Assembly: GCA_021234155.1 (NCBI GenBank)
Contig: JAJEKV010000112.1
Span: 2,474,282-2,538,281, forward strand
Direction of reading: 5' to 3'
Source: Isoetes taiwanensis
Taxonomy: Eukaryota; Streptophyta; Lycopodiopsida; Isoetales; Isoetaceae
DNA length: 64,000 nt
The notes below the pieces were generated by a model, which saw only the letters and a list, made by a program, of their open reading frames with translations, was not told the origin of the DNA and searched no databases. Numbering within the stretch: the first letter of the stretch is position 1; the number at the start of each line of letters is the position of its first letter. Made by a program: the position numbers and the translations under genes. Positions 6,130 to 49,192 of the stretch are shown here, one piece after another.

Positions 6130-6864
6130 AACCAGTCTACGTTGCTATCAAGTGTTCTAAGCTTGTTGCGACTTTTTTAGGAGGACACAATGTCAATCTC
6201 CAATCTGAACATCTTAGAAGAGAAATGCTTACCACAACTACAACTACAATGCTTACCGGAACTGCTACTGCCACAGAAATGATAGGGAAAGATTTTTTGC
6301 TTTTCGAGACACTAGTTTGATTTGGCTGCAGCCCTGAAGGAGAGGGGCTAACCGATGCTGCAGGTGCACATAGTCTGTCTTTGTTAACTCCACAAGCAGA
6401 GGCTTCAAATGATCCGTTTGCACAACGAGAGCAATCCAAACAAATTTTCTCGCCAGAATTTGGACAATAAGACCCAAAATGGTAGAATCCATTTCATACT
6501 GGTCTTCATTACACTTAGACTGGCAAGCGCTTCACTAATGTTGCTAGAATACTTTTGGTTATAATTTCCCCAGCAATAAATTGCCATAGGCTGATCCAAC
6601 CTTACGCCACATGTGTATGTATCCCTAGCAGAGATTACCGTAAACTTGATTCCAGCTCCAACATTTAACATTCAATTGTGCCTGATTCATCTGTTCTAAT
6701 AGCACAAGCATGCCAGCCACCTAAATTCAAATTGGAATAGCTAATATTCTGCAAGGACAAATATCACCCCAGCAAATGGGTGTTCGATCCTTGTAAGTAA
6801 GGCCAGAGTAGCTGCACAAGGTCGAGAACACTGAGATCATCAGCCACAACAAAACGCCTTTCAT
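6130..6864 (-). pseudogene. CRINKLY4-like receptor ectodomain fragment
   Basis: Read on the minus strand from an ATG at 6864, it opens with a signal-peptide-like hydrophobic stretch (MKGVLLWLMISVFSTLCSYSG). Crinkly (RCC1-like) repeat pieces follow: PICWGD, GGWHACAIRTDESGTIEC and DTYTCGVRLDQP..IYCWGN. Next comes a TNFR-like cysteine cluster with the C-S-R-C-A-N-G-S-F-E and KDRLC spacing, then a hydrophobic transmembrane helix rich in I/V at about 6190-6250. This is the domain order of CRINKLY4/CCR receptor kinases. Only about two of the usual seven crinkly repeats remain, the reading frame changes at several single-base positions, and no kinase domain follows downstream. I therefore call it a truncated, frameshifted pseudogene. 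Confidence 0.68.
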
Positions 6865-7752: not shown

Positions 7753-7757
7753 ATGGA
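7753..7757 (+). repeat. Target-site duplication ATGGA, left
   Basis: The five bases immediately before the 5' LTR are identical to the five immediately after the 3' LTR (23244-23248). Five bp is the normal Ty3/gypsy target duplication, so the element is bounded at both ends. Confidence 0.93.
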
Positions 7758-9300
7758 TGTGACGTTCCAGGTATCTATACGGTATGCGTATGCATACCAT
7801 GACACATCACTGGGACACAATGGGCTTAATGGTCCAAGTGAGGGGTTAACCACAATGGTTTTTATTAGCTATGTTAATAAAGCCAAAGGGAATAATTATG
7901 CATTATAATGGCCTAATTAACCTAATTAAGTCATTATGGTCTAATTAACTAATTATCACCAATAGGGGGATGCCACCTGGCCCAAATCGATTGGCCAGAA
8001 GGGACTTACCATTTTGGGCCTAGGAATAGGGGTCCTACCCCATTTTCTGTCCCAAATTCGAATTGGGACTAAGGAGGAGCAGCAGCCTAAGCTTGTTTTG
8101 CCAACACCTACCTACCAGTTTCGGGAAATGGATGCCTACCGTGACCATGATTCCAGCCAGGACACTGGTTAGTCAGTAGACAAGTCTCTTTTCTGCTGAC
8201 ACTTCTTTGAGTAGATGGAATGGTTAAATTCTCTTTATGAATTGTCTTGAATACATGGATGGTAGTTACATTAGTTCTTCCTGCTTCTTCCGTGTATTGG
8301 GAATTAAGGGAAGGGTAGTGGCCTAAAAGCTTCCTAGGATTAGAGATGTCTAAAGTTAGATCCCTTAATACCCAATAATGCGGCCTGTGCACAAGAGCCA
8401 ACCTGGCTGGGGATGCTATGATGTGGTTCAGCACCATATAACGAGTATGATGGTGAATCGGGGGCGGGGTCTTGCCTAGCGCGGCTACAGGACTCCTATA
8501 GTGTGCTAGGCTTATAGCCGGTCACCGTGTGTGGGCCGTGTATGGGTCTGACACTCTCTGGGCCGGAGGGCCTGAGTCATAGATGGCCGTCCTGGGCTCG
8601 AACAGGTTGGTGAGCTGACCTTTAGATTTAGGAGAGTAAGTCGGGTATGGATGCAGGGGTCACTGAGGGGGCACATGTTCTCTTGCACACCCAGGGATCC
8701 GTCATACTCGGGAAGGAGACGCCTCTCTGTCCTGCCTCATCGGACCGGGGAGATGTAACCCGGAGTAGTCCCGAAGGGTGATTCCTTGGGATTGCGCCTC
8801 CGGAGGGCTACAAGCACGTCATAGCATGATTCAGCCTATCTGCAAAGTGTGCACAGGAGGGGCGGATGGAGTGGACAACCCTAGCCATTGTCTTATGCCA
8901 GCCAATGCCATGTTATACTTCCGTCTGTTGATATCTTGAGGCCCTGGCCGTCAGTTGACACCTTGGAGTCTGAGTCCGGGGTAGCGCCCTGTTAGTGTGT
9001 TATTTCATGTTGTTACGAATGGATTATCTTTGCCATGATGATGAGGATGGGCCAGCCTTCGTGGTGGTATATTATTTTGTATTATGATTGTATGCTACCA
9101 TATATGTATGCTTCCGCTGTATAGGATTCCCCATAGAGGACGTGGGGCGAATGACACCTCCGTGATCCTCGCCCGGATACTTGGCCATCCCAAGTAGTCC
9201 GAGTACGCCGAGGGTCTTGCCATGGTGAGTTAGTCGCCATGGGAGGGAAAGTCCCGTGTCTATATGATGGGGGCATCGTATGGATTCTGGGATCGTCACA
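7758..9300 (+). repeat. 5' LTR
   Basis: Begins TGTGACGTTCC and ends GATCGTCACA, so the ends themselves form the short inverted repeat TGTGAC/GTCACA. It aligns along its whole length with 21694-23243, with scattered substitutions and small indels. It holds an inverted repeat GGTATGC..GCATACC near the start and an AATAAA at about 7870. Confidence 0.95.
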
Positions 9301-9301
9301 G

Positions 9302-9319
9302 TGGTATCAGAGCATGGTT
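9302..9319 (+). promoter_or_regulatory. Primer binding site for initiator tRNA-Met
   Basis: TGGTATCAGAGCATGGTT starts one base after the LTR. The first 12 bases exactly match the complement of the plant initiator tRNA-Met 3' end, the usual primer for plant LTR retrotransposons. Confidence 0.93.
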
Positions 9320-9717
9320 TTGGTGGACCAAAACTGTTGCACTGGCCATGGTCTAACTCGTTAGTTGACGGTACGTTCTCCTAGGATAGAGCGTCCCAAC
9401 TCTGTATTTAGTGTCTTAGTTAGTCTAGTTATGGGAGGAATGACCTAGTTGTGGAGGGAAGTGTTCTCTAGTGGAGTGGCTAAGGCCAAAAAGTGGAGTC
9501 AGAGATTCGAGCTTTGTAGTCGCCATAACTTTCTCCACATAGCTCGGATCGACGAGATTTTTATTCCAATGGTCAGGCGTACTCCAAATACCCTAGGGGG
9601 TTTGTTAACCGGCATCAAAATATCGAGCAAGGGGCAAAACCGAACAGCGGCGCCGCTCGTCTTTGGACGCTCCAAAATCGTGAAACAAACTCGTATAACC
9701 GGACCGGCGCCGCTCCG

Positions 9718-9726
9718 TATATAAAA
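9718..9726 (+). promoter_or_regulatory. Candidate internal TATA box upstream of ORF1
   Basis: TATATAAAA lies about 90 bases before the ORF1 start. It follows a GC-rich stretch with the palindrome AGCGGCGCCGCT (about 9647) and a second GGCGCCGCTCC. T-rich leader sequence follows. An internal promoter separate from the LTR is plausible but inferred. Confidence 0.4.
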
Positions 9727-9816
9727 ACGCATATTTTCTGCCGTATAATTTTATTTTATTTTATTTTATTTTTTTTTAGTTTTAAACAAGAAATTTTTCA
9801 AAATTTAAAAAGTTAA

Positions 9817-10743
9817 ATGGCCGTTTCTTTTTGCTTGTCCCGTGCGCCTCCGCCTGACTATCTGCCCGCCCGCCATAGCCACCGGACCCGAGCTCATCAC
9901 CTTGCCTTGGTTGCGCCTACACCATCCCTACACCTCAGCGCCTCACCTTTTGCCTCCATAACCGCCAGCGCCTCAACCATGGCCAACCTTAGGAGCACTT
10001 TGGACCCTGCCAGCCTTACTCTACCCCAGATCTATGCACTGATCAGGAAGCACTTGGCCACCGACAGTGACATGATCGACATCCTCCTAAATGAGTTGGT
10101 GCAGCGCTTCAGCAACGACATTAGGATACCTTACCCCATATTCCATTACTCTGAACAATTCCTGATCAAACTTAATCTCCAACAGCTGCCGTATACCATG
10201 GCCGAGCAACCTGATCAGGTGATGATGCTGATCAAGTTCTATCCCCCTGAATGTGAGGAATATTCTGAGGAGGAGGCCATCCGAAGAGAGGCCACCCGTA
10301 TTCGGACTTTGGCCCGAGAAGACGACCTTCGAAAGGTGGAACGGGCAGACACTGAAGCCTGGGGTCGTGAGTACAGATACTTAGGAGATGGGAGAGCCAT
10401 TATTAACTGCGAGCCTTTCGAGCTTCCCCCATACCAGTGGCATGAGGCCTCCCAGCACTTCATGTGGACTGAGATCCCGGATATCAACCTAGACTATCTG
10501 ACCATAGTCCAGATTGATATGAACCTCCGGCCCGACCGCTACCATGCTGAGCTAATCCGAAGGGTCGCGGCCCGGCGGCTTGCTCAGATGGAAGCCGATA
10601 TGGCACGAGCACGTGAGGCTCGGGAACAAGCAGAACAGGCTCAACAGGAGCAACAGCAAAAGGGGCAACAAGAGAAGGCCCAACAAGAGCCACAACAGCA
10701 GCAGGCCAACACAGAGCAAGAGCCCCGTGTGGGCCTGATCTGA
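9817..10743 (+). CDS. Accessory ORF1, unknown 308-aa protein of the retrotransposon
   Basis: One uninterrupted frame of 308 codons from an ATG at 9817; a second possible start is Met at about residue 55 (9979). I recognise no family. The first 54 residues are rich in P, S, A, H and R. A central region with several acidic and hydrophobic segments follows, then an arginine/alanine helix and a coiled-coil-like glutamine/glutamate tail at about residues 255-300. It lies in the usual leader region before gag, where some plant Ty3/gypsy lineages carry extra ORFs. The stop overlaps an open -1 frame that leads through a basic KKRCRK segment into the histone H3 sequence, so ORF1 and H3 may originally have been one protein. 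It is the longest undamaged frame in the accessory region. Confidence 0.7.
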
Positions 10744-11239
10744 AGGACAAGCCGCCCAGCAAAAGATGTAGGAAATTCACAGCCCACAAGTCCGGCAGCC
10801 AATACAAGGAAAAACTAAAGGCTGTCGAAAATTTGGGTAAGCACACCAGCTCCACGCGGCGGCAGGAAAGAGTGGATGCTGCCCGGCCCCACTCCACCAC
10901 AGCAGGCAAGACAGTGCCAAAGATGACGGGGCTGACTCCAAAGGCTACTACATCAAGGAAGCCTCATCGCTTCAGACCGGGCACCGTGGCCTTATGGGAG
11001 ATCCGTAAGTACCAGAAGACCACGGAGCTGCTAATAAGGAAGCTGCCTTTCCAGAGGTTGGTTCGAGAGATAGCACGGGAATTCAAGACTGACCAAGTTT
11101 GGCGCTTCAAGAGGCTGCTGAAGCCTACCTAATAGCGCTCTTCAGTGATGCAAATCTTTGCGCCATCCACGCAAAGAGGGTCACTATAATGACCAAGGAT
11201 TTAGCCCTTGCCCGGAGAATCCGGGGAGATCAGTTGTAG
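10743..11239 (+). pseudogene. Captured histone H3 (histone fold, novel tail, one internal deletion/frameshift)
   Basis: The frame 10743-11132 carries a basic NLS-like segment (SKKRCRK), a long unfamiliar tail, and then an unmistakable H3 core: [19 protein letters not shown] followed by [18 protein letters not shown] and EFKTD. The C-terminal half continues in another frame at 11102-11239: [27 protein letters not shown], then LARRIRG and a stop. Between FKTD and ALQEAA canonical H3 has nine residues; here only eight bases remain, a net 19-base loss that removes loop L1 and the start of helix alpha-2 and shifts the frame. Differences from canonical H3 include Arg to Trp in VALREIRKYQ, QD to RE, ED to SD, and a DQL end. 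The tail lacks the ARTKQTARKS start. There is no ATG before the fold except an internal one at about 10919. It sits between the unknown ORF1 and ORF2, inside the LTRs. It could derive from a canonical H3 or from a CENH3-like gene; similarity favours canonical. Confidence 0.92.
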
Positions 11240-11279
11240 CTGCCTTCGGGCATTTCTATTGTAACAATTTTGTTATATT

Positions 11280-11285
11280 AATAAA
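11280..11285 (+). terminator. Possible poly(A) signal after the H3 copy
   Basis: AATAAA lies 41 bases beyond the H3 stop, in a T-rich region (TTGTAACAATTTTGTTATA). This suggests the captured H3 may have brought, or acquired, its own 3' end. Confidence 0.35.
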
Positions 11286-11367
11286 AATCCCAATTTTGTT
11301 ACTGTATCCCTGTTATAGGTTAGATAGCTAGTTTTAATAATTCTTTTTTAAAAAAAAATTAATCACA

Positions 11368-11396
11368 ATGCTGACGTCAGCATAAAAGTTATAAAG
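11368..11396 (+). promoter_or_regulatory. Candidate internal promoter: bZIP palindrome plus TATA box
   Basis: ATGCTGACGTCAGCAT (11368-11383) is a perfect 16-bp palindrome centred on TGACGTCA, an ACGT-core bZIP-type site. TTATAAAG follows at 11389-11396, then about 75 bases of CT-rich leader (TTCATCTTCACTCTTCAGC) before ATGs at 11474 and 11497. The arrangement resembles a compact pol II promoter driving ORF2. Function is inferred. Confidence 0.45.
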
Positions 11397-11473
11397 GTAC
11401 TTCAAAAGTTTTAGGGTTTCATCTTCACTCTTCAGCTCTTGTTTATCATCTTTCTTCCTTTCTTCTAGCACCT

Positions 11474-12818
11474 ATGGCTGCCCTCGACCTGCTTGCATGG
11501 TACCAAGATGGGGAGCACTGGGACCCCCAAGTGCCTTTGATCTCCTAAGGCCCTTTCTACTCCAGCATATTGACCTCATCTCAAACATGCAGAATCATCC
11601 TGATTATGCCAGGTTCTTACAGTTTTATACCGAGGAGATGCTTCCTCTTTGCATTCCACAGCTATACATTGAGCGAGCTGTGGTGAAGGAGATGCTGGGA
11701 GGAGGTAAAAGTGGTTACGCGGTGCTCAGGGGCAAACTCCAATGGGCCCGGCATCCACCTGTTGTGGTGCACAAGGGACAAGAGCTTCTCGAAGTATCTT
11801 TTGCCCTGGCCATCCTCATGGACTAATATGTGGACGACAAGACCTTGGCCGCTGAGAAGGGCAAGGTTCCTGAATCCTCAGATGAGGAAGAGGATGAGCA
11901 TATTGGAGTGAACGATTTCGCCCGCTGGAAGCAGCTAGCCCAAGAAATGCCGCCATGACGGGAGCGGGGAGGACATTTAACTGGATTGGATGTTCTTCCC
12001 GTCATATATCACCAGGGCCAGGAGCTTCTCCTCCTGGATGATATTTTATGGACATACCATGTAGTGGCCGGCCTCAAAGGACGGGAGAAAGCGCAGATTC
12101 TCTATGAGCTGGCCGAATATTGCATGGATGACTTTATTGATTTCTCGTCCGTGGACCTCCCTCCTGAGGTACAGCAGCTGCTTCACTTCCATCAACAGAC
12201 CATTGAGCCGGCTGAGACACTTCTCAGGCTTAGGGATCTTGTGCTTCAAGATCCTCCATCTCAACCTCCTCCAGAAGCTTTCATGGCTATGGGGTCTCAA
12301 GTCCCAAATATCAACATGGTAGAGATTCCTCACATTCAGATGAAGAAGGGGAAGACTTGTACCATAACCCGGGCCATGTTTAGGAGGAAGAGGAAGAGCT
12401 TAAGGAAGAGGAGGTTCCTATGGACCTAGAAGGGGAAGTAGCCACTTTGGTTACAATCCAGGGGAAACCAGCGGCAAACCATCTTACCCGCTTCTTCCTG
12501 TCAGCTTGTAGGCATGGGCAAGTTCCTTTTGTGGCCCGTGATCTGGCCATAGAAGCAGAGGCATCGTGGTGGAGCCTCCGTGCCCTATCCACCCTGGCGG
12601 GGCACAAGAAGTTGCCATATCGCATTTTCACTTACGTGTTGGTACGTCGGGACCTCGCCTTGACCGCCTTGGGTCAGGATATCACACCGTGGATGAGCAT
12701 GAAGCTCCTTACAGCGGCCCCATTAGCTGCCGCCTATCCTCCAGAGGTTGCTTCCATTGCGGCCGCCACTGTAGCTCCTCCTACCCCAATGGATCAGGAT
12801 GCGGGGCCTAGCTCCTAG
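11474..12818 (+). pseudogene. Accessory ORF2, copy 1, unknown protein (broken)
   Basis: An unknown protein of about 440 residues, readable in pieces. A short frame from the ATG at 11474 stops after 25 codons, and another ATG at 11497 opens the main frame. That frame has stops at 11824 (TAA where copy 2 has CAA) and 11956 (TGA where copy 2 has CGA), and a one-base deletion near 12328 relative to copy 2. The remainder reads 12420-12818. Recognisable blocks are a helical start (YARFLQFYTEEMLPLC), an acidic segment ESSDEEEDEH, a central LYELAEY..DDFIDFSSVDL, and a proline/alanine tail ending DAGPSS. I know no family for it. A second copy lies at 14830-15908. Confidence 0.6.
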
Positions 12819-13006
12819 CCATTTATGTTATGTATTGTGGAGTATAGCCTTTGGCTACTCAAACATATGTAATTTTGCATTGATTTTTCATGCACTTTTG
12901 AATACAAGCAAATTGTTTTTTTCCTACAATACTTGTCTTTCTCTTCTAGAGTTTGAAGTATGAGGAATAATTCATTTGTTGTATACCCATTCCTGCCTTC
13001 TTACAG
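12819..13006 (+). promoter_or_regulatory. ORF2-ORF3 spacer ending in a strong splice-acceptor-like site
   Basis: After the ORF2 stop, a T-rich spacer ends in CCTGCCTTCTTACAG (AG at 13005-13006), directly before the acidic codons of ORF3. The same structure is preserved in the second copy (AG at 16095-16096). It fits an intron 3' end used to express ORF3 from a spliced transcript. No donor could be fixed. Confidence 0.4.
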
Positions 13007-13467
13007 ACGAAGAAGTGGAAGAAGACAAACAAGAATTGCCTGAAGAACTACAGCAAGAGGACGAGCCACCGCCAGAACAAGACTATGAGGAAGATGATGG
13101 AGAGTATGAAGATGACGATGACGATTATGAAGAAGAGGGACCAGAGGATGAAGGAGAGCCATACGACCCCATCAAGGGTTTTGAGATTGTTAATATCTTT
13201 CGTGATCACGCTTTCGAGCACTTGCAGCAGACGCTCTGTCGCACTTGGAACTATTGGGATATGACTAAACATGAAGCCTTTGCTGATGCAAATGATCACC
13301 TCTGGCAGATATTTTATGCACTTCGAGACCTCTTTAACTTGTTAATCATTAGCCCTACCTTGGACTATCAGTATGTTATAATTCAGGCTTGGGCTAGGTA
13401 CAAAGTGGTTCGAGCCGTGAGGGAAAGTATTCGATATTCTATCCTATACCCCTTCACGCAGCCCTAA
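12976..13467 (+). CDS. Accessory ORF3, acidic unknown protein, copy 1
   Basis: An open frame of about 163 codons without an ATG at its head; real coding may begin at the acceptor-like AG at 13006. The first 60 residues are extremely acidic (runs such as EEDDGEYEDDDDDYEEE). A folded-looking segment follows (GFEIVNIFRDHAFEHLQQ, then RTWNYWDMT, then a hydrophobic region to TQP). I recognise no family. An acidic N-terminus next to a captured histone would suit a histone-binding role, but that is speculation. Copy 2 lies at 16066-16551. Confidence 0.55.
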   Translation: MLYTHSCLLTDEEVEEDKQELPEELQQEDEPPPEQDYEEDDGEYEDDDDDYEEEGPEDEGEPYDPIKGFEIVNIFRDHAFEHLQQTLCRTWNYWDMTKHEAFADANDHLWQIFYALRDLFNLLIISPTLDYQYVIIQAWARYKVVRAVRESIRYSILYPFTQP

Positions 13468-13548
13468 GCTTGTTTCAGAACCTTTCTTCTCGACATGTAA
13501 CCATGTCTTTTCTTTTTTTCTATTTGTATAGCCAACAGGCTTGTAACC

Positions 13549-14829
13549 ATGGGTTTTATCTTAATGACAAATCTGTTTCCTTTTTGTACTCTTGTTGTTA
13601 TAGCAAATGCAATGAGTATGCTTATCTTTGATTTGTTCTATTTAGACGGTGCACGCCCTCCCCCTTGGGCGACACCCGTTCAACCGGGCCGTCTTACCCC
13701 GGAACAGGAGCTCACCATTATGAAACGTCAGCTTACTGAGCTCCAAGCATACGTATTGCAGAAGAATCCACCACAGGAATATGGACCAGAGATTCCCGTT
13801 CCACTGAACCCGCCGCCGCCACTTGCACCTGTACCTGCGGCCGCTACGGCAAGTCGATCTAAGAGGACACGCCCTACTTCATCTTCGGATGCTGCCTCGG
13901 AGTCTTCTGACTCTTATGATTCCTCTGAGGATGAGGCCGACCATGCCAAGGCCAGCAAGAAGGATTACCAGAAAACAGTAGATTCCGCCATCACTAGCAT
14001 CTGGAAAAATCGGAAGCTCGCACAATTCTCAGGCAAAACTAGGAATGGTATGGATGCCGAGCCATGGTTGGATGAAATGCAGCAATTTGGAAAGTCATAT
14101 GGGATGACTGATAAGGATGGCAAAGTTGCCACCACTAATCTTACGGGGTCGGCACGGATTTGGTGGAAGGGGTATGCCCGCTCTCATGGGCTTACAAGGG
14201 AAAGATGCTGTTACAAGGTTTTTGCTAAAGCCTTCAAATCACATTACGTACCAAAGGCTCATCGTTGCCAGCAGATCCAAACTTTCTATCGCTTGGAACA
14301 TAAAAATATGACTGTCCAGGCTTATACAGATGAATTTATGTGCTTACGCTTATATGTCCCAGGGATTAATGAGCCTAGGGCAGTTGAGGGCTACATAGAG
14401 GGCTTATCCCCTACCCTAAAGAAAATGGTTCGAGCCATAGATCCTAAGACTGTCGCAGAAGCAAAGGCTAAAGCACTTAGCCTAGAGGAAGATACGTCAA
14501 AGTAGCAGCCGCCACGACCCTCTTCGTTCACTCAGAACAAGGGATATACGCCTTACAGAGGGCGCTCGCCTAGTCCAGGACCTCCTTCCTCTACTGGATA
14601 TCAGAAGGCTGATAAGAAGGTTTCCTTCACCGTGCCAGAGAATCCCACCAACAATGCCGGAGCTTTCAGAGCTTTCAGGGATATCCTTCAAGCTATCCCT
14701 AGGGATCAGCGTGAACAGTTACGTAGGGAGAAGGCCTGTTATCGGTGTTTCCGCCCGGGCCACCGTATGCAGGAATGCCCATTCATCACACAGACAGTCC
14801 AAGCTGCCCTAGCGGACATGGATTGGGAA
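13549..14829 (+). pseudogene. gag: gag, copy 1 (one in-frame stop)
   Basis: The frame from 13549 is probably entered at an acceptor-like TTCTATTTAG (AG at 13644-13645). It includes a proline-rich linker, a serine/acidic stretch, and the plant Ty3/gypsy gag core (ARIWWKGY.. F.KAFKSHYVPKAHR). The TAG at 14503-14505 interrupts it, then the same frame continues to a CCHC zinc knuckle CYRCFRPGHRMQEC (CX2CX4HX4C) at about 14737-14778. Gag would form the virus-like particle and bind the RNA. After the knuckle the frame runs directly into ORF2 of the second unit, a fusion created by the duplication. Confidence 0.9.
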
Positions 14830-15908
14830 GAGCTTCTCGAAGTATCTTTTGCCCTGGCCATCCTCATGGACCAATATGTGGACGACGAGACCTTGGCCGC
14901 TGAGAAGGGCAAGGTTCCTGAATCCTCGGATGAGGAAGAGGATGAGCATATTGGAGTGAACGATTTCGCCCGCTGGAAGCAGCTAGCCCAAGAAATGTCG
15001 CCACGACGGGAGCGGGGAGGACGTTTAACTGGATTGGATGTTCTTCCCGTCATATATTACCAGGACCAGGAGTTTCTCCTCCTGGATGATATTTTATGGA
15101 CATAGCATGTAGTGGCCGGCCTCAAAGGACGGGAGAAAGCGCAGATTCTCTATGAGTTGGCCGAATATTACATGGATGACTTTATTGATTTCTCGTCCGT
15201 GGACCTCCCTCCTGAGGTACAGCAGCTGCTTCACTTCCATCAACAGACCATTGAGCCGGCTGAGACACTTCTCAAGCTTAGGGATCTTGTGCTTCAAGAT
15301 CCTCCATCTCAACAACCTCCTCCATAAGCTTTCATGGCTATGGGGCCTCAAGTCCCAAATATCAACATGGTAGAGATTCCCTCACATTCAGATGAAGAAG
15401 GGGAAGACTTGTACCATAACTCGGGCCATGTTCGGGAGGAAGAGGAAGAGCTTAAGGAAGAGGAGGTTCCTATGGACCTAGAAGGGGAAGTAGCCACTTC
15501 GGTTAGAACCCAGGGGAAACCAGCGGCAAACCATCTTACCCGCTTCTTCCTGTCAGCTTTTAGGCATGGGCAAGTTCTTTTTGTGGCCCGTGACCTGGTC
15601 CCAGAAGCAGAGGCATCGTGGTGGAGCCCCGTGCCCTATCCACCCTGGCGGGGCACAAGAAGTTGCCATACCGCGTTTTCACTTACGTGTTGGTACGTCG
15701 GGACCTCGCCTTGACCGCCTTGGATCAGAATATCGCACCCTGGATGAGCATGAAGCTCCTTACAATGGCCCCATTAGCTGCCGCCTATCCTCCAGAGGTT
15801 GCTTCCATTGCGGCCGCCACTGTAGATCCAGGGGTTACCTTGTTGCGTCATCGACCGCCACCACCTCCTCCTACCCCAATGGATCAGGATGCGGGGCCTA
15901 GCTCCTAG
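14830..15908 (+). pseudogene. Accessory ORF2, copy 2, 5'-truncated
   Basis: Lacks the first roughly 95 codons of ORF2. It is joined in frame to the end of gag copy 1 (frame 14632-15105), then stops at a TAG near 15103 where copy 1 has TAC. The rest is readable at 15112-15327, 15334-15714 and 15618-15908 with further stops and frame changes. The acidic stretch and the DAGPSS end match copy 1. Confidence 0.7.
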
Positions 15909-16065
15909 CCATTTATATTATGTATTGTGGAGTATAGCCTTTGGCTACTCAAACATATGTAATTTTGCATTGATTTTTCATGCACTTTTGAATACAAGCA
16001 AATTGTTTTTTTCCTACAATACTTGTCTCTCTCTTCTAGAGTTTGAAGTATGAGGAATAATTCAT

Positions 16066-16551
16066 TTGTTGTATACCCATTCCTGCCTTCTTACAGACGA
16101 AGAAGAAGACGAACAAGAATTGCCTGAAGAACTGCAACAAGAGGACGAGTCACCGCCAGAACAAGACTATGAGGAAGATGATGGAGAGTATGAAGATGAC
16201 GATGATGATTATGAAGAAGAGGAACCAGAGGATGAAGGAGAGTCATACGACCCCATCAAGGGTTTTGACATTGTTAATATCCTTCGTGATCATGCTTTCG
16301 AGCACTTGCAGCAGACGCTCTGTCGCACTTGGAACTATTGGGATATGACTAAACAGGAAGGCTTTGCTGATGCGAATGATCACCTCTGGCAGATATTAAA
16401 TATGCACTTCGAGACCTCTTTAACTTGTTAATCATTAGCCCTACCTTGGACTATCAGTATGTTATAATTCAGGCTTGGGCTAGGTACAAAGTGGTTCGAG
16501 CCGTGAGGGAAAGTATTCGATATTCTATCCTATACCCCTTCACACAGCCCT
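16066..16551 (+). pseudogene. Accessory ORF3, copy 2 (frameshifted)
   Basis: Same acidic head and RTWNYWDMT segment as copy 1. A small insertion near 16397 changes the frame and ends the long frame at 16431; homology continues out of frame to the common stop near 16551. Confidence 0.7.
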
Positions 16552-16637
16552 AAGCTTGTTGTTTCAGAACCTTTCTTCTCTACATGTAACCATGTCTTTT
16601 CTTTTTTTCTGTTTGTATAGCCAACAGGCTTGTAACC

Positions 16638-17876
16638 GTGGGTTTTATCTTAATGACAAATCTGTTTCCTTTTTGTACTCTTGTTATTATAGCAAATGCA
16701 ATGAATATGCTTATCTTTGATTTGTTCTATTTAGACGGTGCACGCCCTCCCCCTTGGGCGACAACCGTTCAACCGGGCCGTCTTACCCCAGAACAGGAGC
16801 TCACCATTATGAAACGTCAGCTTACTGAGCTCCAAGCATACGTATTGCAGAAGAATCCGCCACATGAACATGGACCAGAGATTCCTGTTCCACTGAACCC
16901 ACCGCCGCCACCTGCACCTGTACCTGCGGCCGCTACGGCAAGTCGATCTAAGAGGACACGCCCTACTTCATCTTCGGATGCTGCCTCGGAGTCTTCTGAC
17001 TCTTATGATTCCTCTGAGGATGAGGCCGACCATGCCAAGGCCAGCAAGAAGGATTACTAGAAAACAGTAGACTCCGTCATCACTAGCATCTGGAAAAATC
17101 GGAAGCTCGCACAATTCTCAGGCAAAACCAGGAATGGTATGGATGCCGAGTCATGGTTGGATGAAATGCAGGAATTTGGAAAGTCATATGGGATGACTGA
17201 TAAGGATATTGGCAAAATTGCCACCACTAATCTTACGGGATCGGCACGGATTTGGTGGAAGGGGTATGCCCGCTCTCATGGGCTTACAAGGGAAAGATGT
17301 CGTTACAAGGTTTTTGCTAAAGCCTTCAAATCACATTACGTACCAAAGGCTCATCGTTGCCAGCAGATCCAGATTTTCTATCGCTTGGAACATAAAAACA
17401 TGACTGTCCAGGCTTATACAGATGAGTTTATGCGCTTACGCTTATATGTCCCAGGGATTAATGAGCGTAGGCAGGGCTACATAGAGGGCTTATCCCCTAT
17501 CCTAAAGAAAATGGTTCGAGCCATAGATCCTAAGACTGTCGCAGAAGCAGAGGCTAAAGCACTTATGCTGCCACGACCCTCTTCGTTCACTCAGAACAAG
17601 GGATATACGCCTCACAGAGGGCGCTCGCCTAGTCCAGGACCTCCTGCCTCTACTGGATATCAGAAGGCTGATGAGAAGGTTTCCTTCACCGTGCCGGAGA
17701 AGCCCACCAACACTGCCGGAGCTTTCAGGGATATCCTTCAAGCTATCCCTAGGGATCAGCGTGAACAGTTACGTAGGGAGAAGGCCTGTTATCGGTGTTT
17801 CTGTCCGGGCCATCGTATGCAGGAATGCCCTTTCATCACACAGACAGTCCAAGCTGCCCTAGCGGACATGGATTGA
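16638..17876 (+). pseudogene. gag: gag, copy 2 (two stops)
   Basis: Homologous to copy 1, with a TAG at 17058-17060. The same frame then continues through the gag core to a second CCHC knuckle CYRCFCPGHRMQEC at about 17788-17829. A TGA at 17874-17876 replaces the TGG seen in copy 1. The protease follows in the same frame, so gag and pol were once one continuous reading frame here. Confidence 0.9.
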
Positions 17877-18360
17877 GAGGAGCCGGGTAATACCACTGAG
17901 GATGGGGCGCCTGACTATATCACAGGTGAGTCTCACATTTACGCTGCTATTGAAACCGGTCAAGCCAACCACCAGCCCTCTGTCATTTCTATGGTTGGCC
18001 GAGTAGATTGTAAACCTTTTGTCATTCTTATGGATACGGGTAGTACTCATAACTTTGCATCTCCTAGAATTTACCCCTTTGAAGTCTAAGCCGTGTCCAG
18101 TTACTCTGGCAAGTGGTGCTATACGCCACACCCGTGGTCGTCGGATCAATTTGAATATTCAGCTGCCAGGAGCACCTGTTGCTCTAGGGGCTGAGATAAT
18201 GGATATTGGCCGCTATGATCTTATAGTGGGCATGGAATTCTTGGCTGCTGCCAAGGCCAACATTGACTGTGAAAAATGGGAAGTCACCTTCAACGCGGCC
18301 AATGGAGCCCGAGTTACTATAGCAGGTAAGCCGGTTAACCCTATTATGCAATGTATTTCC
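17877..18360 (+). pseudogene. pol: Retroviral-type aspartic protease domain
   Basis: The active-site motif [10 protein letters not shown] lies at about 18027-18056 (DTGS at 18033-18044), in frame with gag copy 2. A frameshift near 18065-18085 moves the rest of the domain ([16 protein letters not shown]) to the frame 18019-18954. It would process the polyprotein. Confidence 0.9.
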
Positions 18361-19340
18361 TTACGCCAATTGCATAGGGCTCTCAGGAAGTCACAAATCA
18401 CGAGCATGATCCGACTTGCTTCCGTGGAAGCTAAGTCCAAACAGGATGAAGCCCTTGATGCCTTGCCTCTAGCAATAGCCATGATTCTTCGTGAATACCA
18501 TGATCTTTTTCCTGATGAGATCCATCGGCTACCACCTTTCAGAGGGGTAGAATGTGAAATTACCTTGGAACCAGGCACCAAGCCTACCAGTAAGGCCCCA
18601 TATCGGATGAGTCTTTTTGAGTTAACCGAGCTTAAGAAGCAGTTACAGGAACTCCTCAAGAAGTTAGGCTTCATCAGGCCTAGTGTTTCACCCTTTGGAG
18701 CCCCAATACTCTTTGTTAAGAAGAAAGATGGCACCATGAGGATGTGCATTGATTACCGGCAACTCAATAAGCATACTATTAAGAATCGATATGTTTTACC
18801 GCGGGCCGTTCATCTTATGGATCAATTGCAACGGGCTAAATATTTTACGAAGATTGATCTTCGTTCAGGATATCACCAGATACGAATTAAAGAGGATGAC
18901 ATCCATAAGTCTGCTTATCTTGAACGGCATGAAGATCATCTTCGAGGATCATGAACGGCATCTTCGATTAACATTACAAAAACTGAGACGTCATCAATTG
19001 TATGCCAAATTCTCTAAGTGTCGTTTTGCCACCACCAAGGTGGATTACCTGGGCCATATTGTATCCGCAGATGGAATAGCCACCGACCCAGCTAAGATTG
19101 AAGCAGTCAAAGAATGGCCCATTCCAACCAACGTGTCTGAGGTTCGCAGTTTTCTAGGCTTAGCCGGGTATTACCGTAAATTTGTCAAGGACTTTTCCAA
19201 GCTCGCTGCACCTTTAACTGATCTCACCAAGCATGAAAAGGTGAGAGATTGGATGGCTCATTGGAAAGACATGGTACAGACCGGCTTTCAAGCCCTAAAG
19301 GATGCTTTGACAACAGCTCCTGTGCTTACGATGCCAGATC
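18361..19340 (+). pseudogene. pol: Reverse transcriptase with catalytic block deleted
   Basis: The N-terminal RT is clear: [33 protein letters not shown] and [17 protein letters not shown]. After KSAY (about 18918) the sequence jumps to a region matching the EEHxxHLR block, then [21 protein letters not shown] and [16 protein letters not shown] in another frame (18749-19399). Roughly 55 codons expected between them, including PFGLTNAP and the catalytic FLDD/YVDD motif, are missing. The junction holds a short near-duplication: GAACGGCAT occurs twice within 40 bases. Confidence 0.92.
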
Positions 19341-19926
19341 CTCAAAAGGATAAGTGGGTTGCAACAGATGCCAGTAAAATTGCTACGGGGGCGTCTTAAT
19401 GCAGGAAGGTCGGGTTATCGCTTATGATTCTCGAAAGATGAACGATGTTGAACAGCGATACCCCACGCATGACCAAGAATTACTCGCCGTTGTGCGTGCC
19501 TTGCGTATTTGGAAGCATTATTTATTTGGAAAGCGATTCCAGTTGGACACGGATCATCAAAGCCTCCAATACATTTTTACGCAACCCCATCTTAATTTGA
19601 GGCAAAGACAGTGGATGGAATTCCTGGAGGAATATGACTTTGAGGTCATTTATAAACCAGGCAAGCATAATGTAGTTGCTGACGCCCTTTCCAGGCATCC
19701 ATTCGTCACTCGCACGCATTGTAATGCTATCTCCACACTCTCCAGTGAGTTTGACAAGCAGATCCAGCAGACCCTTCCTACCGATCATGAATTTCAAGAG
19801 GTATGGCAAAGTGTATCTAGGGAAGCCAGAACTGACAAGGAGATGGAGACTTTCCGCCATTATAAGAAGGAAGCTCAACTCCTTTATTACAAGGACGTCT
19901 GGAGTTTGAAAGCTCATTCTCCATGA
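19341..19926 (+). pseudogene. pol: RNase H domain
   Basis: The first catalytic Asp ([10 protein letters not shown]) is at about 19367. A one-base frameshift near 19396 leads to the frame 19399-19926, which has VIAYDSRKM, the HDQELLAVV glutamate, LDTDHQSL and VVADALSR. All catalytic positions survive, though in two frames. Confidence 0.9.
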
Positions 19927-21247
19927 TACACATAACAGTCCGATAGCAGGGCATGCGGGGTTTATGAAGACATATTTCAAAATCCGCCCCAGCTATTTCT
20001 GGCCAGGCATGAAGAAGCATATTACCAGGTACATTAAGCAGTGCCGGACTTGTCAGCAAACAAAGGCAGAACAGTTGCGTATTCCAGGTGAATTGCAACC
20101 CCTCGACGTATCCAATGCTAAGTGGGAGGTTATTACCATGGATTTTATCGTGGGGCTTCCGCGTACCTTAAGGGGGTTTGATGCCTTAATGGTAGTGGTC
20201 GACAAACTCTCTAAAATAGCCCATTTCTTGCCATGTCGTACCACAGATACTGCATTGGATACTTCCTTGCTCTTCATCAAGGAGGTGTTTCGTCTGCATG
20301 GGATGCCCCATACCATTATATCGGATAGGGATCCTAAGCTTGTTAGTGCATTCTAGAAGGATTTCTTCAGCACTATTCAGACTAAGCTGGCCATGAGCAC
20401 AGCTTATCATCCGCAGACAGATGGTCAAACCGAGCGTGCCAATCGCATCATTGAAGATATGCTGCATAACTATGTCTGGAACAAACAGTCTCAATGGGCA
20501 GATTACATTTATTTGGTAGAGTTTGCCTACAATAGTACCAAACAGGAGTCCTCAAGGATGTCTCCTTTCATGATTAATTATGGCTATCAATGCCTTACAC
20601 CAGACACGTGGCATAATCCAGTCTCCAAGGTGGAGGTTTCCCAGCAATTGCTTGCAGACATGCAAGGCCTGGTTGAAGAGGTTCGAGCATATTTCTTAGC
20701 TGCAAGAGCTCGACAGAAGAGTCTAACAGATCGCCACCGTACTCCTCGAGAGTTTCAAATTGACGAGTCCGTTTGGCTAAAGATCAAGGTGAAGCAAGCC
20801 AAGCTTAAAATTGGCAACTGTAAGAAGCTTGCACCTAGATGGGCGGAGCCCTTTCGGATAACCAAACGGATAGGACCTCAAGCCTACCGGTTGGATCTAC
20901 CCGCATATTTAAAGATCCATAAAGTCTTCCACGTAAGTCTTCTCAAGAAGCACCATTTGAATCCAGAAGAGATACTGCACACACCAACACTTCTGGAAAT
21001 GACTGAGGAGCAATTGGAGATTGTGCCAGAAGCTCTCCTTGATCGTGCCTATAAACAAACCTGTCGAACTCAAATTTTGCAATACTTGGTTAAGTGGAAA
21101 CATTTACCCACAGAGGACGCAACATGGGTTCTTAAGGCAGATTTGCATAAGACTTACCCCGACTTTATGAAGGAGTGCCAGGGCCGAACCATCCAAGATG
21201 CGATCATCTCCAACCCAAATGGTAAGCAGAGTGGTCTGTTAGTGTGA
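19919..21247 (+). pseudogene. pol: Integrase with GPY/F module and chromodomain-like C-terminus (one stop)
   Basis: The HHCC zinc motif starts at LHDTHNSPIAGHAG and ends KQCRTCQQTK. The catalytic core has MDFIVGLP (D), ISDRDPK (D) and TDGQTERANR (E). TAG at 20354-20356 interrupts the frame, which otherwise continues to 21247. A GPY/F-type segment (RWAEPFRITKRIGPQAYRL) follows. The C-terminus has the chromodomain-like ILQYLVKWKHLPTEDATW at about 21073-21126. Chromodomains direct integration to particular chromatin, classically through methylated H3 tails. Confidence 0.92.
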
Positions 21248-21683
21248 CAGGGGTCATATGAGTGCAATCCGGCACGGATTCTTTTAGGGGTTGGGTTACA
21301 TGCATCCTAGATAGGGAAAGTGGGCATATAGGCATTCATGATAGGACGCATTCGTCTACGGCCATTATGGGAATACTGCCATTTCTTACGCTGAGACGAC
21401 ATGCAAGCCCTAGACAAACACTAATGCATGTACTTCTGCAGGCCAGTAGAGCGTACTCATAAGCTGCAGAAGACTGGAGGCCTCACGAAGTAGGCCAACT
21501 TGTGTTTTTGAATTTGACTTGTTTTTGGAATGTGTTTCAAAATAATTTCTTACTGTTTTGTTTAGAGGGGACTTCTTGTCCTACTGTTCCCTGTGTAAAC
21601 CTTTTCTATTTCAATAAATTAAAGTATTTCTGCTGTAACTTGCTCTCCACTAACTCTAATGCTGAGGACAGCATTAATCCAAT

Positions 21684-21693
21684 GGGGGGAGAA
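21684..21693 (+). promoter_or_regulatory. Polypurine tract
   Basis: GGGGGGAGAA lies directly before the 3' LTR and is the expected plus-strand primer. Confidence 0.92.
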
Positions 21694-23243
21694 TGTGACA
21701 TTCCAGGTATCTATACGGTATGCGTATGCATACCATGACACGTCACCGGGACACAATGGGCTTAATGGTCCAAGTGAGGGGTTAACCACAATGGTTTTTA
21801 TTAGCTATGTTAATAAAGCCAAAGGGCATAATTATGAATTATAATGGCCTAATTAACCTAATTAAGTCATTATGGTCTAATTAACTAATTATCACCAATA
21901 GGGGGGTGCCACCTGGCCCAAATCGATTGGCCAAAAGGGACTTACCATTTTGGGCCTAAGAATAGGGGTCCTACCCCATTTTCTCTCCCAAATTCGAATT
22001 GGGACTAAGGAGGAGCAGCAGCCAGCAGCCTAAGCTTGTTTTGCCAACATCTACCTACCAGTTTCGGGAAATGGATGCCTACCATGGATATGGTTCCAGC
22101 CAGGATACTGGTTAGTCAGTAGATAGGTCTCTTTTCTGCTGACACTTCTTTGAGTAGATGGAATGGTTAAATTCTCTTTATGAATTGTCTTGAATACATG
22201 GATGGTAGTTACATTAGTTCTTCCCGCTTCTTCCGTGTATTGGGAATTAAGGGAAGGGTAGTGGCCTAAAAGCTTCCTAGGATTAGAGATGTCTCTAGTT
22301 AGATCCCTTAATACCCAATAATGCGGCCTGTGCACAAGAGCCAACCTGGCTGGGGATGCTATAATGTGGTTCAGCACCAGATAACGAGTATGATGGTGAA
22401 TCGGGGGTGGGGTCTTGCCTAGCGCGGCTACAGGACTCCTATAGTGTGCTAGGCTTATAGCCGGTCACCGTGTGTGGGCCGGGTATGGGTCTGACACTCC
22501 CTGGGCCAGAGGGCGTGAGTCATAGATGGCCGTCCTGGGCTCGAATGGGTTGGTGAGCTGACCTTTAGATCTAGGAGAGTAAGTCGGGTACGGATGCGGG
22601 GGTCACTGAGGGGGCACGTGTTCTCTAGCACATCTAGGGATCCGTCATACTCGGGAAGGAGACGCCTCTCTGACCTGCCTCATCGGACTGGGGAGATGTA
22701 ATCCGGAGTAGTCCCGAAGGGTGATTCCTTGGGATTGCGCCTCCGGAGGGCTACAAGCACGTCATAGCATGATTCAGGCTATCTGCAAAGTGTGCACAGG
22801 AGAGGCGGATGGAATGGACAACCCTAGCCATTGTCTTATGCCAGCCAACGCCATGTTATACTTCCGTCTGTTGATATCTTGAGACCCTGGCCGTCAGTTG
22901 ACACCTTGGAGTCTGAGCCCGGGGTAGCGCCCTGTTAGTGTGTTATTTCATGTTGTTATGAATGGATTATCTTTGCCATGATGATGAGGATGGGCCACCC
23001 TTCGTGGTGGTATATTATTTTGCATTATGATTGTATGCTAACATATATGTATGCTTCCGCTATATAGGATTCCCCATAGAGGACGTGGGGCGAATGAACC
23101 TCCGTGATCCTCGCCCGGATACTTGGCCATCCCAAGTAGTCCGAGTACGACGGAGGACCTTGCCATGGTGAGTTAGTCGCCATGGGAGGGGAAGTCCCGT
23201 GTCTATACGATGGGGGCATCGTATGGATTCTGGGAGCGTCACA
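21694..23243 (+). repeat. 3' LTR
   Basis: Begins TGTGACATTCC and ends GAGCGTCACA. It aligns with the 5' LTR throughout. Differences in the first 160 bases amount to about five substitutions. Confidence 0.95.
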
Positions 23244-23248
23244 ATGGA
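23244..23248 (+). repeat. Target-site duplication ATGGA, right
   Basis: Identical to 7753-7757. Confidence 0.93.
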
Positions 23249-48223: not shown

Positions 48224-48295
48224 GGAGTATTCCGAGAATTGAACTCGGGACCTCTTGCACCCTAAGCAAGAATCATACTACTAGACCAAATACCC
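48224..48295 (-). tRNA. tRNA-Pro(AGG), copy 1
   Basis: A 72-base cloverleaf reads on the minus strand from GGGTATTTGGTCTAG. The anticodon arm is CTTGC-TTAGGGT-GCAAG (anticodon AGG) and the T arm is CCGAG-TTCAATT-CTCGG. The acceptor has one G-T wobble, and the D loop has AGTAG where AGTGG is expected, which weakens the A box. It may be functional or slightly decayed. Confidence 0.75.
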
Positions 48296-48415
48296 TAAGA
48301 CGTTTTGTGAGGCTATTATGAAATATAAATGTTTATTGGCTTTTCATCCTTTTGACATCCTGACATGAGTGGATATTAAATGCTTATATCAAATAAGAGA
48401 AAGGACATAGTTCAT

Positions 48416-48487
48416 GGGGTATTCCGAGAATTGAAATCGGGACCTCTTGCACCCTAAGCAAGAATCATACCACTAGACCAAATACTC
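48416..48487 (-). tRNA. tRNA-Pro(AGG), copy 2, probably a pseudogene
   Basis: Same family and anticodon arm as copy 1. The 5' acceptor reads GAGTATT against AATACCC (one mismatch), and the T stem has a G-to-T change giving one mismatch. The flanks are shared with copy 1, so it arose by tandem duplication. Confidence 0.7.
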
Positions 48488-48937
48488 TAAAACATACCAT
48501 GAATCTACAATCTCAAGTGTGCAACCCTTTCACATCCATTGTATAATTGGACATTCTGTTTTGACACCTTGCATGTCCAGATAGAGCTGTCTAGAGTGGT
48601 TCTTGTTGGTGAAAATGGTTGTACACATTTTTACTTAAGCTCACAATTAGGCTTATAATTAAACTATTTTACGTGAGCAATTTATCTTCTATGAATACTC
48701 AATTGCTTTTACATTATTTTCTTTTTGAATATTCATAAAGATTGAGATATAGTGACGACTTGATCTTGGGATTTTTGAATAAGCACTCGAATGGTATAAC
48801 TAGATTGCATCTCTTTGGCGTATTGCTAGAGTGACCGAATTAGAATACATCCGTCGTAACATTAGGCAACCTAGAGTGTTTAATTCAATCATGTCATTGA
48901 ATGTTGCACGAAGTGATATCCTCACAAAAAGCATAAT

Positions 48938-49009
48938 GGAGTATTCCGAGAATTGAACTCGAGACCTCTTGCACCCAAAGCAAGAATCATACCACTAGAC
49001 CAAATACCC
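48938..49009 (-). tRNA. tRNA-Pro(TGG), anticodon-changed copy
   Basis: Same body, but the anticodon loop is TTTGGGT instead of TTAGGGT, so the anticodon is TGG; it still encodes proline. Stems are intact, with one G-T in the acceptor and one in the T stem. A TTTTT run lies about 10 bases past the 3' end on the minus strand, as a pol III terminator would. Confidence 0.8.
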
Positions 49010-49120
49010 TTATAAGTCTATTACGAAAATAAAGTTGTATTGGCTTTGCATCCCTTTAACTTTTTGACGCGAGTGAGATGTTAAATGCTTATATCAAATA
49101 AATGAAACACCATAGCTCAT

Positions 49121-49192
49121 GGGGTATTCCGAGAATTGAACTCGGGACCTCTTGCACCCTAAGCAAGAATCATACCACTAGACCAAATACCC
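49121..49192 (-). tRNA. tRNA-Pro(AGG), best-preserved copy
   Basis: A fully paired acceptor (GGGTATT/AATACCC), anticodon stem and T stem, and a canonical A-box region TGGTCTAGTGG. The flank beyond its 5' end (49193-49275) repeats the flank of copy 1 almost exactly. Confidence 0.87.

What the first reader, a model, noticed from the sequence alone, without database searches (positions are those of the whole stretch)
10743..11239. Histone H3 captured inside a Ty3/gypsy retrotransposon
Between the 5' LTR and gag lies an H3 histone fold with long near-exact matches to H3 ([43 protein letters not shown]). The N-terminal tail is unlike any H3 tail I know. The LTRs, target duplication, PBS and PPT all place it inside the element. 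I know of no described plant LTR retrotransposon family carrying a core histone. If the family is real and repeated in the genome, the histone is cargo that may influence chromatin at new insertions.
Basis: partly seen in the sequence, partly recalled or inferred. Interest (0 to 1): 0.95.

Follow-up and report, generated by a model that had tools for sequence, protein, structure and literature searches.

The report
Retrotransposon family encoding its own histone
A plant jumping-gene family carries its own altered version of the DNA-packaging protein histone H3, joined to an unknown protein and kept in working order by natural selection, which suggests that a genomic parasite may build its own chromatin.

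Summary
A Ty3/gypsy element with an integrase chromodomain (7758-23243; TSD ATGGA) carries a histone H3 fold between 5' LTR and gag. It is no isolated capture: in the same genome (1.66 Gb; size and contig count fit Isoetes taiwanensis) I list 174 distinct element-type H3 places on 82 contigs, a lower bound. In 20 long-frame copies the H3 ends one 404-453 aa protein: an unknown N-terminal region (ORF1), a ~60 aa basic tail unlike the H3 tail, and a complete H3 fold. dN/dS in the fold is 0.13 in copies found by DNA similarity and 0.03 within the main group of long-frame copies; wrong frames give at least 1.09. The deepest groups share 35% of ORF1 but 85% of the fold. H4 is not amplified. The window's own copy is broken. 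Its action is inferred: an element-encoded H3 variant that pairs with host H4 and enters chromatin, perhaps to evade silencing. Fungal hAT DNA transposons with H3 are the precedent; I saw no retroelement with a core histone in eight paper searches.

The parts
7758..9300 (+). 5' LTR (TG...CA), preceded by TSD ATGGA at 7753-7757
   Evidence: self-comparison 95.7% to 3' LTR; ends and TSD read
9302..9313 (+). primer-binding-site-like TGGTATCAGAGC (initiator-tRNA-Met type, from recall)
   Evidence: sequence directly after the LTR
9979..10740 (+). ORF1, N-terminal part of the ORF1-H3 fusion; out of frame with H3 in this copy
   Evidence: open frame; alignable in 20 other copies, dN/dS 0.29, and 0.10 within group B of the long-frame set
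10744..10958 (+). basic tail of the H3 part, no significant similarity to the host H3 tail
   Evidence: dN/dS 0.21
10959..11236 (+). histone H3 fold, here in two frames (10959-11093 and 11093-11236), stop 11237-11239; loop 1 is 19 nt short in this copy
   Evidence: PF00125 2.3e-15 and 7.6e-17
11280..11285 (+). AATAAA after the H3 stop
   Evidence: AATAAA within 120 nt of the stop in 15 of 21 copies (3.0 expected from shuffles) and in 16 of 20 long-frame copies
11368..11396 (+). palindrome ATGCTGACGTCAGCAT (11368-11383) and TATAAAG (11390-11396): promoter-like site before ORF2
   Evidence: exact TGACGTCA within 300 nt after H3 in 15 of 21 and 16 of 20 copies, absent in both group C copies
11497..12818 (+). 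ORF2 region (acidic stretches, no Pfam match), frame broken here
   Evidence: matched downstream of H3 in 19 of 20 copies read
12976..13467 (+). ORF3 (strongly acidic), no Pfam match above a curated cut-off
13549..14832 (+). gag, first copy
   Evidence: Ty3_capsid 2e-15, Retrotrans_gag 1.1e-11 for 13501-14502
14828..17883 (+). second copy of a tandem internal duplication (first copy 11780-14833), includes a second gag
   Evidence: 93.6% identity; K2P 0.034; Ty3_capsid 6.9e-14 for 17061-17873
18007..20353 (+). protease, reverse transcriptase, RNase H, integrase zinc-binding part (several frames)
   Evidence: PF08284, PF00078, PF17919/PF17917, PF17921
20357..21244 (+). integrase C-terminal part with chromodomain
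   Evidence: SH3_Tf2-1 8.4e-21, Chromo 7.3e-08
21694..23243 (+). 3' LTR, preceded by a purine tract and followed by TSD ATGGA (23244-23248)

Best explanation
This is one damaged member of an old, large family of Ty3/gypsy chromodomain retrotransposons whose first gene, between the 5' LTR and gag, codes for a fusion protein: an unknown N-terminal region (ORF1), a new basic tail and a complete histone H3 fold. SHOWN: many copies, constant position in the copies read, fused frame, purifying selection on fold, tail and ORF1 (strongest on the fold), kept DNA- and H4-contact residues, no recognisable H3 tail. INFERRED: the protein pairs with host H4 and is placed in nucleosomes or tetrasomes as an element-encoded H3 variant. 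It thereby shows the ORF1 region on chromatin and takes away the normal tail with K4, K9, K27 and K36. Its most likely gain is that chromatin formed on newly made element DNA, or around the element, is harder to silence by H3 tail methylation, or recruits the element's own machinery. I put 'an element-encoded H3 variant fusion gene kept by selection' at about 0.95, 'it acts through H4 pairing and chromatin' at about 0.6, and 'its gain is escape from silencing' at about 0.3; the score below is for the chain up to chromatin.
For: Family: DNA search, 40 scored of 1398 first look, all 40 match (the window itself and 39 others at 75-85%). Canonical H3 query: 150 scored of 9022 first look; 15 are host H3 genes, 135 are element type, of which 51 lie in one open frame of 400 aa or more and 6 have a stop inside. 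ORF1-only query from group C: 150 of 150 scored match (2957 first look); 77 of 150 have a separately listed H3 59-258 bp downstream, 0 upstream, 0 on the other strand. Integrase query: 22 of 132 scored (26844 first look) have a listed element H3 3.1-9.6 kb upstream on the same strand, 0 downstream, 0 opposite. Selection: fold dN/dS 0.135 and tail 0.21 in 21 copies; within group B of the long-frame set fold 0.031, tail 0.22, ORF1 0.10; gag 0.22; wrong frames 1.09 to 7.3. Fold: 72 of 99 sites are invariant and equal to the host H3; T45, R49, R52, K56, R63, R69, R72, K79, R83, C110, H113, K115, R116, T118, K122, D123, L126 and R129 are unchanged in 20 of 20 (their roles are recalled). Specificity: H4 has 69 first-look candidates and 16 full-length genes, no amplification.
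Against: No expression, protein or binding data. The 20 long-frame copies were chosen from hits ranked by similarity to canonical H3 and for open frames, which lowers their dN; the 21-copy set, chosen by DNA similarity to the window copy, is free of that choice but more decayed: 10 of 21 have a stop in the H3 tail or fold, and others, the window copy among them, have frame changes or gaps. One pair within group A gives a tail ratio of 0.38. 73 of 150 ORF1 hits and 110 of 132 integrase hits have no listed H3 near them; the lists are capped, but these places were not inspected. Against simple escape from K9 methylation: an ARKS or ARKT motif stands 50-59 residues before the fold in 7 of 20 long-frame copies, all group B. 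ORF1 has no Pfam domain and its single-sequence model is useless (mean pLDDT 46).
Confidence: 0.6

Rival explanations
1. The histone fold is used inside the particle or pre-integration complex rather than in host chromatin: it condenses the element's RNA or cDNA, or borrows histone import factors and chaperones to reach the nucleus.
For: The gene stands upstream of gag; the tail is basic and DNA-contact residues are kept. Site 87 is F in 20 of 20 long-frame copies where the host has S, and 86, 102 and 105 are changed too; sites 87, 89 and 90 are recalled as chaperone-sorting sites of H3.
Against: A packaging protein need not keep H4-pairing and H3-H3 contact residues, yet C110, H113, R116 and D123 are invariant in 20 of 20. 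The gene has its own stop and, in 15 of 21 and 16 of 20 copies, a following AATAAA, apart from gag.
Confidence: 0.2
2. It is a targeting tether: ORF1-H3 sits in host nucleosomes and marks where the integrase, through its chromodomain, brings new copies.
For: The integrase carries a chromodomain and the same element carries an H3; some tails carry ARKS or ARKT.
Against: No insertion-site preference was tested. The ARK motif is missing in 13 of 20 long-frame copies.
Confidence: 0.2
3. Passive passenger: the histone was captured once and is carried along without use, as reported for H3 in the hAT elements of Pseudocercospora.
For: Many copies are damaged; the captured H3 copies of Pseudocercospora fijiensis are all inactivated (PMC6710886, abstract).
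Against: dN/dS 0.03-0.14 in the fold, with wrong-frame controls of at least 1.1. The fold is kept at 85% between groups whose ORF1 is only 35% alike.
Confidence: 0.03
4. The copies are host genes (an H3 variant family) next to or inside which retrotransposons inserted.
For: Some copies are clean open frames followed by AATAAA.
Against: Constant order ORF1-H3-ORF2, with LTR sequence upstream in 14 of 20 copies read; two elements read to both ends have the H3 between their LTRs and TSDs.
Confidence: 0.01

Closest known systems
Histone H3-like (H3L) genes in hAT DNA transposons of Pyrenophora tritici-repentis (PMC3538342; passages)
   Same: A transposable element carries a full-length H3-like gene beside an ORF of unknown function and multiplies it; the H3 differs from typical fungal H3; ESTs are reported.
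   Different: DNA transposon, fungus, 10 almost identical copies of the long form in the reference genome; an LTR element and a fusion to an ORF1 are not described in the passages seen. Here: retrotransposon, plant, fused to ORF1, old groups, measurable purifying selection.
H3 captured by hAT elements in Pseudocercospora fijiensis and relatives (PMC6710886; abstract and passages)
   Same: H3 captured and multiplied to hundreds of copies by a transposable element.
   Different: There all captured copies are inactivated by RIP; here many are open and constrained.
Bracovirus histone H4, CpBV-H4 (PMC5423620; listing and start of abstract)
   Same: A parasite-encoded core histone reported to join host nucleosomes and act through its N-terminal tail; the nearest functional parallel.
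   Different: H4 not H3, polydnavirus not retroelement; no long fused protein that I know of (recall).
Viral histones of large DNA viruses, some fused to unknown protein segments (PMC9145170; passages)
   Different: DNA viruses, histone singlets to quadruplets; the words 'retrovir' and 'retrotranspos' have 0 occurrences in the review's main text.
Ty3/gypsy chromoviruses (features recalled)
   Same: LTRs, gag, PR-RT-RH-IN, integrase chromodomain.
   Different: The extra histone fusion gene upstream of gag, plus ORF2/ORF3 in groups A and B.
CENH3/CENP-A (from recall)
   Same: H3 fold with a long, divergent N-terminal tail.
   Different: Fold aligns to canonical host H3 without gaps, so no longer loop 1; multi-copy mobile gene.

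Membership tests
Ty3/gypsy LTR retrotransposon, chromodomain-bearing | two LTRs bounded by a short target duplication | tested here: met
   LTRs 7758-9300 and 21694-23243, TSD ATGGA; second element with TSD AGTTC
Ty3/gypsy LTR retrotransposon, chromodomain-bearing | gag, then protease-RT-RNase H-integrase | tested here: met
   window pieces; the group C stretch L058 has gag, PR, RT, RH, IN in this order
Ty3/gypsy LTR retrotransposon, chromodomain-bearing | chromodomain at the integrase C-terminus | tested here: met
   PF00385 E 7.3e-08 at residues 224-273 of window 20357-21244
Histone H3 | complete H3 fold | tested here: met
   long-frame copies: PF00125 2.5e-41, 2e-43, 2.2e-41 for three of the 20 scanned; all 20 have 99 ungapped fold residues against host H3. 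Not met in the window copy itself, which is frameshifted
Histone H3 | H3 N-terminal tail (ARTKQTARKS..., AARKS) | tested here: not met
   TARKS and AARKS in 0 of 20 long-frame copies; no significant tail similarity in 7 copies (151 to 980 of 1000 shuffles as good) and 8 others (281 to 1909 of 2000)
CENH3 | longer loop 1 than H3 (recalled) | tested here: not met
   fold of 20 long-frame copies aligns to host H3 without any gap, 99 residues each
CENH3 | groups with CENH3 in a tree | not tested
   no verified plant CENH3 sequence was in hand; the cell rows of the tree are H3 only
CENH3 | location at centromeres | not testable with these tools
   needs immunostaining or ChIP
Processed retrogene inserted in an element | own target duplication around the H3 | tested here: not met
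   no shared word of 8 bp or more between 10500-10965 and 11230-11430
Transduplicated passenger gene fragment | no selection on the captured gene | tested here: not met
   dN/dS 0.03 to 0.14 in the fold

The most novel reading that the evidence does not exclude
A retroelement makes its own nucleosomes: ORF1-H3 pairs with host H4 and replaces H3 on the element's DNA, so that the usual K4/K9/K27/K36 marks cannot be written at their normal places and ORF1 is displayed instead, as counter-silencing or integration-site control. This would be, as far as my searches reach, the first retroelement known to code for a chromatin building block.
Probability: 0.35. Interest if true: 0.98.

Novelty: new variant of a known kind. 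Interest (0 to 1): 0.93.

Why it matters
Plants hold LTR retrotransposons down mainly by marks on histone H3 and on DNA (established knowledge). An LTR family that has kept its own H3 variant under strong selection, with the modifiable tail replaced, points to a counter-move at the level of the nucleosome itself and makes it testable. It also gives a natural experiment on which H3 residues can change while nucleosome contacts are kept: seven sites (86, 87, 102, 105, 107, 124, 135) where none of 20 long-frame copies has the host residue, in an otherwise little changed fold. It offers a datable case of a host chromatin gene becoming a structural gene of a retroelement.

Tried and rejected
Led nowhere: homologues of the window's ORF1 (2045 candidates, none at E <= 1e-3) and gag (367 candidates, none) among 5.8 billion proteins; H3 tail plus fold there is swamped by tandem cellular histones (best 120 of 7986 shown), and its length limit (94-299 aa) excludes the 404-453 aa fusion, so only bears on fusion proteins; viral contigs with ORF1 (8 pattern matches, none confirmed); AlphaFold of ORF1 alone (mean pLDDT 46; no fold search was run). 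Papers: ten searches ran, eight on this question and two on the organism; one search failed on a term. I saw listings of at most 20 papers each, so absence from print is only as good as that.

Considered and rejected: separate retrogene insertion; single-copy oddity; general amplification of histones (only H4 was tested); CENH3 capture (ungapped fold; best structure matches canonical H3); tail as a plain relic of the H3 tail, although one C-type tail has STGGK (L057, 281 of 2000 shuffles as good). A first idea of mine, that the tail has lost every K9-like site, was wrong: ARKS or ARKT occurs in 7 of 20 long-frame copies. Donor: the host H3 has E at 77, groups A and B E or Q, group C D, so site 77 does not settle the donor.

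Limits: the genome search scores only the best candidates, so counts are lower bounds. 20 of the 51 long-frame hits were fetched, picked by hand. Open-frame lengths were tallied and those (63 of 150 at 400 aa or more); stops were counted by eye. In one search the second half of the script failed, so ARK motifs were counted only in the long-frame set. The second element read to both ends (L010) shows no gag match, though an integrase match lies in it.

Full report
OBSERVATION. The window holds an LTR retrotransposon, 7758-23243, with LTRs 95.7% alike, a 5-bp target duplication ATGGA, a PBS-like site and a purine tract. Protein pieces fit Ty3/gypsy: gag twice (Ty3_capsid 2e-15 and 6.9e-14), protease, RT, RNase H and integrase, and an integrase C-terminus with chromodomain (7.3e-08). 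Between 5' LTR and gag lie two matches to PF00125 in neighbouring frames, 2.3e-15 and 7.6e-17; the best PDB matches are canonical H3. So the histone is real and inside the element. In this copy it is broken: the frame changes in loop 1, where 19 nt are missing, and it stands out of frame with ORF1, whose end it overlaps. No direct repeat of 8 bp or more brackets it. A tandem duplication of ~3.05 kb (11780-14833 and 14828-17883) explains the two gags.

WHOSE GENOME. The assembly has 1,658,258,908 bases in 1110 contigs. The Isoetes taiwanensis assembly is reported as 1658.30 Mb with 204 scaffolds and 909 unplaced contigs (PMC8566536, passages). I take it to be that quillwort; this is inference.

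FAMILY. A DNA search with the H3 segment scored 40 of 1398 first-look candidates and all 40 match. I read 20 of them over 9.3-9.7 kb. All 20 have ORF1 followed by H3 and the post-H3 segment; 19 of 20 go on into ORF2; 14 of 20 show some LTR sequence upstream and 12 of 20 gag sequence downstream, within the stretch fetched. One copy read to both ends has its own duplication AGTTC and LTR K2P 0.031; it shows no gag match but holds an integrase match. A search with canonical H3 scored 150 of 9022: 15 host genes (96-98%) and 135 element-type matches (71-86%), 51 of these in one open frame of 400 aa or more, 6 with a stop. Together 174 distinct element-type places on 82 contigs. Control: H4 gives 69 first-look candidates, 43 matches, 16 full-length genes.

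ARCHITECTURE. 20 long-frame copies picked by hand from those 51 were fetched. Trimmed from the likely start to the end of the fold, each is one frame of 404-453 codons: ORF1 (about 240-295 residues), a basic tail (59-65 residues in those measured), and a 99-residue H3 fold. Three groups: A (like the window), B (16 of the 20), C (L055, L057). In C, gag-protease-RT-RNase H-integrase follow the histone gene within 0.4 kb, without ORF2/ORF3. A 4-kb stretch after one B copy shows ORF2-like frames (by eye) and no gag frame; two other B copies (L043, L050) have a listed integrase match 6.5 and 9.5 kb downstream. Position controls: 77 of 150 C-type ORF1 hits, found by ORF1 alone, have a listed H3 59-258 bp downstream, none upstream or on the other strand; 22 of 132 integrase hits have a listed H3 3.1-9.6 kb upstream on the same strand, none downstream or opposite. 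Because each list is the top of thousands, these are lower bounds; the other 73 of 150 and 110 of 132 were not inspected, so lineages without H3 are not excluded.

SELECTION. Over 21 copies chosen by DNA similarity, the window's included (210 pairs), dN/dS is 0.135 in the fold and 0.21 in the tail; ORF1 0.29 (210 pairs) and gag 0.22 (10 sequences, 45 pairs). Within group B of the long-frame set (120 pairs): fold 0.031, tail 0.22, ORF1 0.10 (116 pairs finite); the single A pair gives 0.04, 0.38 and 0.20, the single C pair 0.03, 0.23 and 0.19. Reading the same alignments in the two wrong frames gives 1.09 to 7.3. Between C and A/B, ORF1 is 35% and the tail 33% identical but the fold 85% (dS is saturated there and finite for few pairs). 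The long-frame set is biased towards low dN by the way it was found; the 21-copy set is not, and 10 of its 21 members have a stop in the H3 part. Both point the same way.

WHAT THE PROTEIN LOOKS LIKE. In the 20 long-frame copies 72 of 99 fold residues are invariant and equal to the host H3. Of 20 sites that I recall as DNA contacts or as H3-H4 and H3-H3 contacts, 18 are unchanged in all copies; R42 and K64 vary conservatively in two copies each. The host residue is absent from all 20 at 86, 87, 102, 105, 107, 124 and 135. A tree of 25 element and 5 cell rows separates element H3 from cellular H3 by a 100/99 branch, as one capture would, but the fold has few informative sites and the tree is unrooted. 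The tail has no significant likeness to the H3 tail in the 15 copies tested; TARKS and AARKS are absent in 20 of 20, while ARKS or ARKT occurs 50-59 residues before the fold in 7 of 20. ORF1 has no Pfam domain and no annotated homologue was found with the window's ORF1.

EXPRESSION SIGNS. AATAAA within 120 nt of the H3 stop is found in 15 of 21 copies (3.0 expected by shuffling) and in 16 of 20 long-frame copies; exact TGACGTCA follows within 300 nt in 15 of 21 and 16 of 20, not in the two C copies (no chance expectation was computed for it). I read this as a separate transcript for ORF1-H3 and an internal promoter for what follows in A and B; it is not tested.

MECHANISM. Shown: a mobile, repeated, constrained fusion gene with an H3 fold. 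Inferred: H4 pairing and entry into chromatin. Guess: the gain is escape from, or use of, H3-based chromatin states. Rivals are packaging or import in the particle, and tethering for integration.

PRECEDENT. In eight searches of open-licence PMC papers (listings of up to 20 papers each) I found H3 in fungal hAT DNA transposons (PMC3538342, passages; PMC6710886, abstract and passages) and histones in DNA viruses, among them a bracovirus H4 reported to act in host nucleosomes (PMC5423620, start of abstract; PMC9145170, passages), and no retroelement with a core histone. Subscription papers and preprints were not searched.

Noticed in passing
window 11780-14833 and 14828-17883: Tandem internal duplication of ~3.05 kb covering ORF2 part, ORF3 and gag; its divergence (K2P 0.034) is close to that of the LTRs (0.039), so it probably arose near the time of insertion.
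   Followed up: partly
window 11497-13467; L058, L059: Two further unknown, acidic ORFs lie between the histone gene and gag in the window and its near relatives but not in the C copy read; acidic stretches are a habit of histone chaperones (recalled), so they may belong with the histone.
   Followed up: partly
window 11368-11396 and other copies: TGACGTCA after the H3 gene in 31 of 41 copies, with TATA-like sequence nearby in some: possible internal promoter.
   Followed up: partly
window 48224-49192: Four tRNA-Pro genes on the minus strand within 1 kb, in locally repeated DNA.
   Followed up: no
window 6137-6671, minus strand: Short frames that look like a CRINKLY4-type receptor kinase fragment (by eye, recalled).
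   Followed up: no
genome, 15 places: The eight host H3 genes read are intronless and encode one identical protein with E77 and L90; four of the 15 lie within 0.3 Mb on contig C1025 and two within 0.06 Mb on C445.
   Followed up: partly
L038-L057 tails: ARKS or ARKT, a K9-like motif, in 7 of 20 long-frame fusion proteins, only in group B: a possible histone mimic far from the normal position.
   Followed up: partly
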